64,000 bases of DNA. Origin: Acetohalobium arabaticum DSM 5501. Its GTDB lineage: Bacteria; Bacillota; Halanaerobiia; Halobacteroidales; Acetohalobiaceae. Shown here piece by piece: positions 58,603 to 60,732 of this stretch (position 1 is the first letter of the stretch; each line of letters starts with the position of its first letter). The DNA is taken from NCBI RefSeq assembly GCF_000144695.1, contig NC_014378.1, forward strand, positions 310,001 to 374,000, written 5' to 3'. The notes beneath the pieces were generated by a model that saw nothing but the letters and a program-made list of their open reading frames with translations, was not told the DNA's origin and ran no database searches. Both the position numbers and the translations under genes were made by a program.

Positions 58603-59085
58603 ATGAAGAGGTTGATTATTCTATTTTTAATAATTGGAATGTTATCTTTTATGGTATTTGATTCAGGAGTAAACTTTCCTGCTAAGTTAGAAACAGTCGG
58701 TATTAACTGGACGATTATAGCGGAAGATGTATCACAGGTAGCAATGATGGTTAAGCAAAGTACAGCTAGTTTAATTAATATTATGTTTGGCAAGGATAAG
58801 GAAGTAGAGGAGGATATTGCTCGTTATGATGCAGGAGAAATGCATCTGGAAGGTGAGATAAAAAAGATCTCTGATAATCCACGGGCAATTCATATTAAGT
58901 TGCATATGAGTGATATAAATGATAAAGTAGATAATCCAATAGAGATTGCTTCTAGGGCAGTCTTTAAGATTAAAGAAGATAAGGCAACTTTTCGTAGTTT
59001 ACAGATAGGCGATATAGTAGGAATTATTATTAATCCCCAAGGTAAAGCAAGAAAGATCACCGTTTATAATCGACCACAGCAATAA
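58603..59085 (+). CDS. Unknown membrane-anchored protein (160 aa)
   Basis: I do not recognise this protein. It has an N-terminal hydrophobic helix (residues 3-20), a mixed segment with a second weakly hydrophobic helix (about 36-66) and a charged C-terminal domain (about 78-158). The latter has alternating strands (MHLEGEIKKISDN, IGDIVGIIINPQGKARKITV) that suggest a small beta-barrel. It probably faces outside the cell. SD TAGGTGA. It lies directly upstream of the omegaRNA/IscB element and would be next to polA without it. Confidence 0.65.
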   Translation: MKRLIILFLIIGMLSFMVFDSGVNFPAKLETVGINWTIIAEDVSQVAMMVKQSTASLINIMFGKDKEVEEDIARYDAGEMHLEGEIKKISDNPRAIHIKLHMSDINDKVDNPIEIASRAVFKIKEDKATFRSLQIGDIVGIIINPQGKARKITVYNRPQQ

Positions 59086-59135
59086 AGGAGCTATGAAACA
59101 GCTTGTAAATACCTATTTAATGTCATTTAAAATTA

Positions 59136-59400
59136 GGTAAAGTTCTTCATTGCTCTCCAGGCTCAGCAAGTGTAGAGAGCAGAAATGTTCTTAGCATGAT
59201 GAGCTACGTTATTTGGTTAAAGAGTGTAATGCTCGACAAGGCTATCACACCCTCGAATGTATCCCATCAGTTCTAGGCTCTGTGGCAGTTAGGAAGAACG
59301 CTTACCTAAGTCAACTGATAAGGTAGCCTAACACCGAAACTGCATAAGCCCCATTTGACATTGCCGAGAAGGGAAGTTCCCGTTAAGGAGGTCGCCAGAG
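59136..59400 (+). ncRNA. omegaRNA (HEARO RNA) of the IscB system
   Basis: The 250-300-base noncoding segment directly before iscB matches the omegaRNA/HEARO layout. A first stem GCTCTC (59152-59157) pairs with GAGAGC (59175-59180), several further stems and a pseudoknot-like pairing follow (ATCAGTT near 59268 with AACTGAT near 59314), and the RNA runs into the iscB ribosome site AAGGAGGT (59385-59392). In characterised IscB systems the guide is about 16 nt at the 5' end just before the first stem. By that rule the guide is about 59136-59151 (GGTAAAGTTCTTCATT). The exact 5' end is an estimate. Confidence 0.85.
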
Positions 59401-60657
59401 ATGGCAATTAACTATGCTTTTGTATTAGACAATGAAGGTAAAATGTTAGATCCGACTAAAGCTAAGAAAGCATGGTATTTAATTCGACAAGGTAAAGCTG
59501 AATTAGTCGAAGAGTATCCACTTATTATTCAATTAAATAGGACAGTGCCTAGCAGTCAAATTAATGATGACGAGATAGTACTAGGTATTGATGATGGTGC
59601 TAAATATGTAGGTGTTGCTTTAGTGCAGGATTGCAAGACTAAAAATAAAGTATTATTCAAGGCTAAAATGAAACAGCGCCAAGATGTATCTGCTAAAATG
59701 GAAGAACGAAATGATTACCGTGGATATCGTAGATCACATAAAAGATATCGACCAAAAAGATTCGATAATCGCTTTGCCAGTAAGAGAAAAGGTAGACTAC
59801 CGCCGAGCATTAAACAAAGGAAACAAGCGATTTTGCGAGTAGTTAAACATTTAAGCAAGCATATTCGGTTAGATAAGATAATTTTAGAGGATGTTTCCAT
59901 AGATATTCGTAAACTAACCGAAGGTGAAGAGTTATATAGTTGGCAGTATCAAGAATCTAATCGACTTGATGAAAATCTTCGCAAAGCTACTTTGAAGCGT
60001 GATGATTATACCTGCCAATTATGCGAAGTAGAAGATACTATGCTTCATGCCCACCATATTATACCAGTAAGAGATGGTGGAGCTGACAGTATCTATAATC
60101 TAATTACTTTGTGTGCTGATTGTCATAACAATAAAGTAGATAATAATGAATATAAGTACAAAGATCAACTTTTAACTAAAATTGATGGAAAAGAATTAAA
60201 TTTAAAACCAGCAATGCATGTAATGCAGGGTAAAAGTTGGTTAAGAGAAGAGTTATCAACCATGGCTAAGTTAGAAATTACTACAGGCGGGGATACAGCT
60301 AATCGCAGAATTGATTATAATATTGAGAAAACTCATTCCAATGATGCAATCTGCATTACTGGGTTGTTACCAATAGATAGATTAGATATCAAAGGATACT
60401 TTATCAAGCCGTTGCGTAAGAAAAGAGCAAGCAAGATAGACTCTCTAGGTGATTTTAAGCACCGAGATGTGATTCGCTACATTAAAAGGGATGGAACAAC
60501 TTATCTAGGCTATATTACTGCTTTACGAGTTAAAAACAACAAATATAACTCTAAAGTATGTAATTTTACTACTTTAGATGGTGAAAAGACATTTAGAGGA
60601 TACGGGTTGACCAATTTAACTTTAGTAAATAGACCGCAGGGTCTAATGATTATTTAA
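59401..60657 (+). CDS. iscB: IscB RNA-guided nuclease (RuvC + HNH)
   Basis: The 418-aa Cas9-ancestor nuclease of IS200/IS605-type elements uses omegaRNA to cut DNA. Domain order is complete: an N-terminal PLMP-like segment (LDPTKAKKAWYLIRQGKAEL, 16-35), RuvC-I with Asp64 (LGIDDG), an Arg-rich bridge helix (about 100-131) and RuvC-II with Glu163 (ILEDVS). The HNH follows (CQLC 205-208, HAHHI with His218/219, CADCH 238-242), then RuvC-III (His312, Asp315 in THSNDA) and a C-terminal TAM/RNA-interacting domain. All expected catalytic residues are present, so it looks functional. No tnpA transposase is adjacent, so movement would need one supplied in trans. Confidence 0.93.
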   Translation: MAINYAFVLDNEGKMLDPTKAKKAWYLIRQGKAELVEEYPLIIQLNRTVPSSQINDDEIVLGIDDGAKYVGVALVQDCKTKNKVLFKAKMKQRQDVSAKMEERNDYRGYRRSHKRYRPKRFDNRFASKRKGRLPPSIKQRKQAILRVVKHLSKHIRLDKIILEDVSIDIRKLTEGEELYSWQYQESNRLDENLRKATLKRDDYTCQLCEVEDTMLHAHHIIPVRDGGADSIYNLITLCADCHNNKVDNNEYKYKDQLLTKIDGKELNLKPAMHVMQGKSWLREELSTMAKLEITTGGDTANRRIDYNIEKTHSNDAICITGLLPIDRLDIKGYFIKPLRKKRASKIDSLGDFKHRDVIRYIKRDGTTYLGYITALRVKNNKYNSKVCNFTTLDGEKTFRGYGLTNLTLVNRPQGLMII

Positions 60658-60662
60658 CATTT

Positions 60663-60732
60663 AAAAGGAGGTGTCGAACCTGGTTATAAGTTAATTAGTT
60701 TTGAGTAGCTTTTTATAACCAGGCTAATTATG
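60663..60732 (+). promoter_or_regulatory. polA translation-initiation region with hairpin between SD and ATG
   Basis: The only good Shine-Dalgarno before polA, AAAAGGAGGTG (60663-60673), is 58 bases from the ATG (60730). Between them is a perfect 11-bp hairpin, CCTGGTTATAA (60679-60689) with TTATAACCAGG (60713-60723). Folding it would leave about 13 bases between SD and ATG. It may be the right end of the IscB element or a structural control of polA translation. Confidence 0.6.

What the first reader, a model, noticed from the sequence alone, without database searches (positions are those of the whole stretch)
59136..60657. Intact IscB nuclease with its omegaRNA between an unknown membrane gene and polA
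The 418-aa protein keeps every expected RuvC and HNH catalytic residue. The preceding 250-300 bases have the HEARO/omegaRNA arrangement: first stem GCTCTC/GAGAGC, pseudoknot-type pairing, 3' end merging with the ribosome site. No tnpA is present. By the known rule, the 16-nt guide would be the chromosomal flank 59136-59151, so this locus may encode a fixed guide. An AT-rich imperfect palindrome (59110-59120 with 59127-59139) just upstream may be the left transposon end. The PLMP motif is divergent (LDPTKAKKAW).
Basis: partly seen in the sequence, partly recalled or inferred. Interest (0 to 1): 0.75.

Follow-up and report, generated by a model that had tools for sequence, protein, structure and literature searches.

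The report
IscB element targeting ribosome-binding sites
This is a mobile RNA-guided nuclease gene (an IscB, from the family that gave rise to Cas9) that has inserted exactly into the ribosome-binding site of the DNA polymerase I gene, and its relatives in bacteria and phages do the same at dozens of other genes while bringing a replacement ribosome-binding site with them.

Summary
In detail: window 59401-60657 encodes an intact IscB, preceded by an omegaRNA with strong covariation, although Rfam's HEARO model scores it only 25 bits. A second genomic copy and an empty site in a congener put the ends at about 59091 and 60723, so 59136-59151 is scaffold. The guide should be the left flank, 59074-59090 (CCACAGCAATAAAGGAG).

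The new finding is the target. The element sits inside polA's Shine-Dalgarno (SD) sequence: the congener reads TAAAAGGAGG-CTAATT-ATG, here TAAAGGAG|element|CTAATT-ATG. At 34 of 37 insertion sites of this IscB clade (Halanaerobiales, other Bacillota, Staphylococcus phages, viral contigs) the left flank ends in an SD core. The right end supplies a new SD before the start codon, in some copies followed by a hairpin that would bring the two together. Three iscB-less copies sit before rplK, hup and pfkA.

Y1 transposase is absent from the genome with most copies and from the three phages searched. One phage site carries recoded codons that would escape its own guide. I favour transposase-free, self-guided homing into SDs. 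SD targeting is near-certain; the mechanism is inferred.

The parts
59074..59090 (+). Predicted omegaRNA guide = left flank CCACAGCAATAAAGGAG; its seed UAAAGGAG is the stop codon of the upstream gene plus polA's original Shine-Dalgarno core (3' limit uncertain by about 3 nt)
   Evidence: Empty site in G001, second copy with other flank, guide geometry from PMC9640706
59091..60723 (+). The mobile element (about 1633 bp), inserted in polA's Shine-Dalgarno sequence
   Evidence: Comparison with empty sites in G001, G002, G004 and with copy 2
59091..59159 (+).
   Evidence: Present in the other copies with different but still pairing stems
59160..59365 (+). omegaRNA core, closed by the nexus stem 59160-59162 / 59363-59365
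   Evidence: Covariation in 12 sequences
59366..59400 (+). 3' part of the omegaRNA merging with the iscB ribosome-binding site (AAGGAGG)
   Evidence: Sequence
59401..60657 (+). iscB, 418 aa, intact
60664..60673 (+). Replacement Shine-Dalgarno sequence (AAAAGGAGGT region) carried by the right end
   Evidence: Sequence; same feature in L024, L034, L037, G008, L117, L118
60678..60723 (+). Right-end hairpin CCTGGTTATAA...TTATAACCAGG between the replacement SD and the polA start
   Evidence: Forms in the minimum-energy fold of all four copies tested, z -1.0 to -2.1
60724..60732 (+). Right flank CTAATT and polA start codon ATG; predicted TAM side of the empty target
   Evidence: Identical CTAATTATGG in the empty site of G001

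Best explanation
Shown: the locus belongs to a clade of IscB/omegaRNA elements that insert into Shine-Dalgarno (SD) sequences, keep the left part of the SD as their 5' flank, and supply a new SD (directly, or as SD + hairpin + spacer) before the start codon of the downstream gene. Inferred: the omegaRNA is transcribed from the host operon and takes its guide from the left flank, so that its seed is the SD (here UAAAGGAG). IscB cuts the unoccupied allele (flank + rest of the SD), and repair from the occupied copy spreads the element (homing). As every guide ends in an SD and both element ends carry SD-like sequence, occasional cutting or joining at other SDs seeds new sites, where the guide is rewritten automatically. 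No dedicated transposase is needed. The replacement SD keeps the host gene translated, so sites before essential genes are tolerated. Confidence: SD targeting 0.95; replacement SD 0.8; self-guided homing 0.5. The figure below is for the whole chain.
For: Empty polA site in three relatives with GGAGG before ATG. 15 of 17 first-set left junctions have AGGA at the exact place, chance about 4e-30; in an independent viral-contig set 19 of 20 sites have GGA/GGG/AGG. Solo elements' common right end stops exactly after AAGGAGG before rplK, hup and pfkA; 11 of 11 relatives have nusG-rplK joined with an SD. Phage empty alleles at sites B and C. Homing: no Y1 transposase in G006 (three full, three solo copies) or in three phages; SD letters at both junctions; at phage site A four recoding changes in four codons against five in the next 46, on the side where the TAM would make a target, while the left flank keeps the original letters. 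Intact catalytic residues and covarying omegaRNA.
Against: No cleavage, transcript or mobility was measured. Guides of different copies share only about 5-8 seed-proximal bases, fewer than the 13-14 that known IscBs need, so guide-directed spread to new SDs needs relaxed matching or another route. No clear TAM consensus in the right flanks. This genome has nine Y1 hits, so TnpA in trans is possible here. Hairpin fold z-scores are modest.
Confidence: 0.5

Rival explanations
1. An IS200/IS605-type Y1 transposase acting in trans, or since lost, moves the element and recognises a GGA(G) target that happens to be the SD core; IscB only retains the element at its site, as proposed for classic OMEGA systems.
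For: Literature places IscB in IS200/IS605-type elements; insertion next to a fixed short motif is typical of that family; nine Y1 hits in this genome and Y1 genes in G003, G008, G012, G087, G276.
Against: No Y1 match in G006, the genome with most copies, nor in the three phages. The fixed motif is on the guide side, opposite to the classic copies in the same genome, whose fixed flank is ATGA at the right. Right ends differ widely (hairpin type, TTTTAAAAGG type, solo type), and SD letters recur at both junctions.
Confidence: 0.3
2. Insertion is mediated by another host or phage recombination route (for example end-joining or recombination at SD-like short homologies) and IscB's guide plays no part in choosing sites, only in homing into identical alleles.
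For: SD-like letters at both junctions; guides of different copies share too few bases for known IscB cleavage.
Against: Short-homology insertion alone would not explain the precise and repeated choice of SDs over other purine-rich sequence; recoding at phage site A fits guide-directed cutting.
Confidence: 0.12
3. A resident, domesticated IscB controls polA expression or defends the cell, and the SD position is maintained for regulation.
For: Single intact copy with intact catalytic residues before polA; SD-hairpin-ATG could be regulatory.
Against: Absent at polA in the congener and two other relatives; a 99% identical left half at another locus shows recent movement; relatives sit before many unrelated genes.
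Confidence: 0.05

Closest known systems
HfmIscB (PDB 9k2z)
   Same: Closest protein of known structure: E 9e-117 over residues 3-377, compact IscB of the same architecture.
   Different: Its natural insertion site, guide and TAM could not be read here; no paper on it is in the library.
Classic IscB/HEARO elements (Rfam RF02033; OgeuIscB; the two copies at C1:694641 and C1:1176653 of this genome)
   Same: omegaRNA followed by iscB, RuvC/HNH residues, 5' guide taken from the left flank, nexus-type RNA core.
   Different: 28-34% protein identity; the classic copies score 128.7 bits to HEARO against 25.3 here; their left flanks are free and the right flank is ATGA, whereas here the left flank is an SD and the right end brings a new SD.
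IscB-like 'HNH endonucleases' of Staphylococcus Twortvirinae phages
   Same: Same clade (48-51% identity), same omegaRNA core, three of four sites in SDs with the same kind of ends.
   Different: Carried by phages, no hairpin at the right end; one site is inside codons and recoded. Annotated only as HNH or hypothetical proteins, in some records with a HEARO feature.
Free-standing homing endonucleases and self-splicing introns
   Same: Would spread by cutting the empty allele; insertion made harmless to the host gene.
   Different: Targeting by an RNA guide taken from the flank, and harmlessness through a replacement SD instead of splicing.

Membership tests
IscB (OMEGA RNA-guided endonuclease) | Protein profile: bridge-helix/RuvC with inserted HNH, scoring over the curated cut-off | tested here: met
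   guided_IscB 320 bits against 175; RRXRR 187 bits; HNH 46 bits
IscB (OMEGA RNA-guided endonuclease) | Intact RuvC and HNH catalytic residues | tested here: met
   D64, E163, H219, H312, D315 invariant
IscB (OMEGA RNA-guided endonuclease) | omegaRNA 5' of iscB with HEARO-like core | tested here: met
   Covarying structure in 12 clade members; sub-threshold HEARO hit
HEARO RNA, Rfam RF02033 | Score at or above the gathering threshold (83 bits) | tested here: not met
   25.3 bits; so it is HEARO-like, not an RF02033 member by Rfam's rule
IscB (OMEGA RNA-guided endonuclease) | RNA-guided cleavage of a target given by the left flank, with a TAM | not testable with these tools
   Only indirect: recoded guide match at phage site A
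IS200/IS605 transposon | Y1 transposase in the element | tested here: not met
   No such ORF in 59091-60723; none in G006 or three phages
IS200/IS605 transposon | Terminal hairpins and insertion next to a fixed short motif without target duplication | tested here: inconclusive
   Hairpins near both ends of this copy, not of all copies; fixed GGA(G) motif at the left; SD letters recur at the right, so duplication cannot be told from element-borne SD
Homing element | Present/absent polymorphism at an exact site in near-identical flanks | tested here: met
   Phage site B flanks 99.7% identical, occupied or empty; Silviavirus site A seven occupied and most others empty
Homing element | Nuclease cuts the empty allele and drives conversion | not testable with these tools
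   Needs cleavage and cross experiments

The most novel reading that the evidence does not exclude
A clade of IscB elements is a transposase-free, self-guided mobile element whose seed sequence is the Shine-Dalgarno sequence itself: it homes into ribosome-binding sites, rewrites its guide at each insertion, also moves as solo omegaRNA elements served in trans, and rebuilds the ribosome-binding site of the gene it enters.
Probability: 0.45. Interest if true: 0.9.

Novelty: new variant of a known kind. Interest (0 to 1): 0.8.

Why it matters
If true, IscB gains a clear natural life cycle and a way to spread without a transposase, which bears on how the ancestors of Cas9 lived before CRISPR. It names the ribosome-binding site as a safe harbour used by a mobile element across bacteria and phages, with a built-in repair (a replacement SD, in some copies bridged by a hairpin). 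It predicts for every member that the guide ends in AAGGA(G) and that the empty allele is its target, which can be tested directly. It also shows that Rfam's HEARO threshold misses a whole group of omegaRNAs.

Tried and rejected
Infernal's placement of the first HEARO stem and nexus at 59125-59140 and my own first reading of GGTAA 59135-59139 with TTGCC: replaced by the covarying nexus 59160-59162/59363-59365. The tnpA/tnpB-like genes beside copy 2 (L008) belong to a separate, broken IS200/IS605-type element. Selection alone (random insertion, harmless survivors): rejected because insertion upstream of an intact SD would be just as harmless, yet junctions fall exactly in the SD. 'AGGAG is merely the element's own end': rejected where empty alleles exist, since the SD is in them; not excluded copy by copy for viral contigs. 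A TAM consensus in the right flanks: none convincing. First viral scan with the single protein found nothing; the alignment query worked. Plasmids gave only distant IscBs. A first DNA alignment was a mis-specified trial and is not used. No paper found on HfmIscB or on IscB with SD targets.

Full report
WHAT IS THERE. The window lies in a single 2,469,596-base contig, the size published for Acetohalobium arabaticum Z-7288 (PMC3035264). Window 59401-60657 encodes a 418-aa IscB: NCBIfam guided_IscB 320 bits against a cut-off of 175, Pfam RRXRR and HNH. Its best match of known structure is HfmIscB 9k2z. The RuvC and HNH catalytic residues are present and invariant in an alignment that includes a classic IscB of the same genome.

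THE OMEGARNA. Rfam's HEARO model gives 25.3 bits, far below the gathering score of 83, whereas two classic HEARO loci in the same genome score 128.7. To test the RNA independently I aligned twelve members of this clade from bacteria and phages. RNAalifold finds 33 pairs, 26 with compensatory change. 92.1% of cells pair, against 72.0 (sd 1.5) in shuffles and 30-47% in slid structures; the covariation score is 0.602 against 0.223 and 0.036-0.117. The structure came from the same alignment, so the slid controls flatter it somewhat. The nexus stem maps to 59160-59162 with 59363-59365.

WHERE THE ELEMENT ENDS. 538 of 541 bases from window 59083 recur at C1:2135840 with an unrelated left flank. The rest of that copy is gone, and a broken IS200/IS605-type element follows. 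In the congener G001 the same two genes are joined as CGACCGCAGAAATAAAAGGAGGCTAATTATGGAAGAC. The window has CGACCACAGCAATAAAGGAG on the left and CCAGG|CTAATTATGGAAGAT on the right. The element is thus about 59091-60723, and it split polA's Shine-Dalgarno (SD) sequence. G002 and G004 are empty too, with GGAGG before the polA start.

A GENERAL RULE. Copies in G006, G003 (Fuchsiella alkaliacetigena), G012, G008, G276 and G087 begin right after an SD core. Right junctions lie 6-9 nt before a start codon in the bacterial copies. Three copies in G006 have no iscB (solo omegaRNA elements). They sit in front of rplK, a HU gene and pfkA (names from the translated starts), and their common right end ...AACAAGGAGG stops exactly where the three sequences diverge. 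In eleven relatives nusG and rplK are joined directly with an SD between stop and start codon. Where the upstream gene could be read (window, copy 2, L024, L025, L056, L059, phage sites B and C), it ends just before the element on the same strand; so the guide is probably transcribed by read-through from the host operon (inference).

PHAGES. Staphylococcus Twortvirinae phages carry 48-51% identical IscBs; these and a deleted copy occupy four sites. At site B, JDF86 is occupied, and phiSA_BS1, with flanks 99.7% identical, reads AACCTATAAAGGAGAAAAGACTATTATGG. The occupied left flank ends TATAAAGGA and the right side is AAGGAGGAGAAAAG...ATG. Site C behaves alike, with empty GACAGTAAGGGGATACTTG in PSU4; there the last A before the element is not in the empty allele, so the exact left limit is uncertain by a base or more. 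Site D, internally deleted, has AAAAAGGA on the left and AAAAAGGAGGGTAAATAATGG on the right. Site A (Silviavirus) is the exception: insertion in the A-rich first codons of rusA, just before AAGGTGATG. There the right side encodes the same amino acids with AGT changed to TCG and AAA to AAG, four changes in four codons against five in the next 46, while the left flank keeps the original letters. That is the stretch the guide would match.

INDEPENDENT TEST. After forming the rule I scanned viral contigs with the clade alignment: 33 loci, of which 22 are full-length at 51-82% identity. Of the 20 distinct sites whose left end can be placed by the conserved start motif, 19 have GGA, GGG or AGG directly before it; the exception (L119) has GAA. 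Right ends that reach a gene show an SD followed by a start codon. Together with the first set, 34 of 37 sites obey the rule. In the first 17 alone, 15 have AGGA at the exact junction; AGGA occurs at 0.8% of window positions, giving a chance of about 4e-30. Caution: for contigs without an empty allele, GG could belong to the element. Where empty alleles exist (polA, rplK, phage sites B and C), GG is in the target.

REPLACEMENT RIBOSOME-BINDING SITE. Most right ends finish in ...TTTTAAAAGG(AG) shortly before the start codon. The window, G006 and G008 iscB copies and viral contigs L117 and L118 instead carry an SD, then a hairpin, then a short spacer and ATG. In the window this is AAAAGGAGGTGTCGAA-[CCTGGTTATAA...TTATAACCAGG]-CTAATT-ATG. 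The hairpin forms in the minimum-energy fold of all four copies tested, with modest z-scores (-1.0 to -2.1), and the stems differ in sequence while staying paired. Folding would bring the SD near the start codon. This role is inferred, not shown.

THE GUIDE. In OgeuIscB the guide is -17 to -1, directly 5' of the guide-adaptor hairpin, with a proposed seed at -8 to -1; mismatches at TAM-proximal positions 1-14 abolish cleavage (PMC9640706). Another IscB works best with 14-15 nt and detectably with 13 (PMC13180657). Applied here, the guide is CCACAGCAATAAAGGAG (59074-59090) and the seed UAAAGGAG, exactly the letters shared with the flank of copy 2. Elsewhere in the genome three places match the last 12-14 letters, with mismatches only at the distal end. 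Two of these are SDs: GAAAGCAATAAAGGAGGCAGTGAGGTATG at C1:1147081 and GCCAGCAATAAAGGAGTTAATTATATATG at C1:740167 on the other strand.

HOW IT PROBABLY MOVES. Y1 transposase genes are absent from the complete G006 genome, which holds three full and three solo copies, and from the three phages searched; this genome has nine Y1 hits. Right ends are varied, and SD letters recur at both junctions. I therefore favour self-guided homing, with SD homology at both ends helping rare moves to new SDs. The main difficulty is that guides of different copies share fewer bases than known IscBs require. TnpA in trans remains the strongest rival.

RELATION TO KNOWN SYSTEMS. By protein and RNA core this is an IscB/omegaRNA locus. 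It fails Rfam's HEARO threshold and lacks the Y1 transposase of IS200/IS605 elements; a survey of HEARO nucleases also found TnpA only rarely (PMC9755519). Classic IscBs in the same genome have free left flanks and a fixed ATGA on the right. I found no paper in the library on SD-targeting IscBs; the library holds open-licence papers only, so earlier reports elsewhere cannot be excluded.

Noticed in passing
G006 C1:183365, 407289, 1603526 (L056, L059, L058): Three solo omegaRNA elements without iscB, with their own right-end hairpin CCTAGTGG...CCACTAGG, before rplK, pfkA and a HU gene; they may be served in trans by the full copies. L056 lacks part of the nexus (GACATTGCC).
   Followed up: partly
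L009 and L010 (C1:1176653 and C1:694641): Two near-identical classic HEARO/IscB elements with sharp ends (GTCACC... to ...CATTTTC|ATGA); the one at 694641 has a frameshifted iscB.
   Followed up: partly
L008 841-3317 (C1:2135840-2138316): Second copy of this element, truncated after 541 bp and followed by a broken IS200/IS605-type element with frameshifted tnpA and tnpB-like genes.
   Followed up: partly
L063 2230-3790 (Silviavirus VL10, site A): Phage IscB locus whose right side carries synonymous recoding of the first rusA codons and a new start (MLNLTNSKKK).
   Followed up: yes
window 59094-59141: A 15-codon open frame (MKQLVNTYLMSFKIR) starts at the ATG just inside the left end, 4 nt after the split Shine-Dalgarno core; by DNA the ATG is shared by the window, copy 2 and G006 copies but changed in L025, L050 and L056.
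   Followed up: no
window 58603-59085: 160-aa gene with an N-terminal hydrophobic stretch, no Pfam or NCBIfam hit, found in four of five Halobacteroidaceae genomes searched, directly upstream of polA in those inspected.
   Followed up: no
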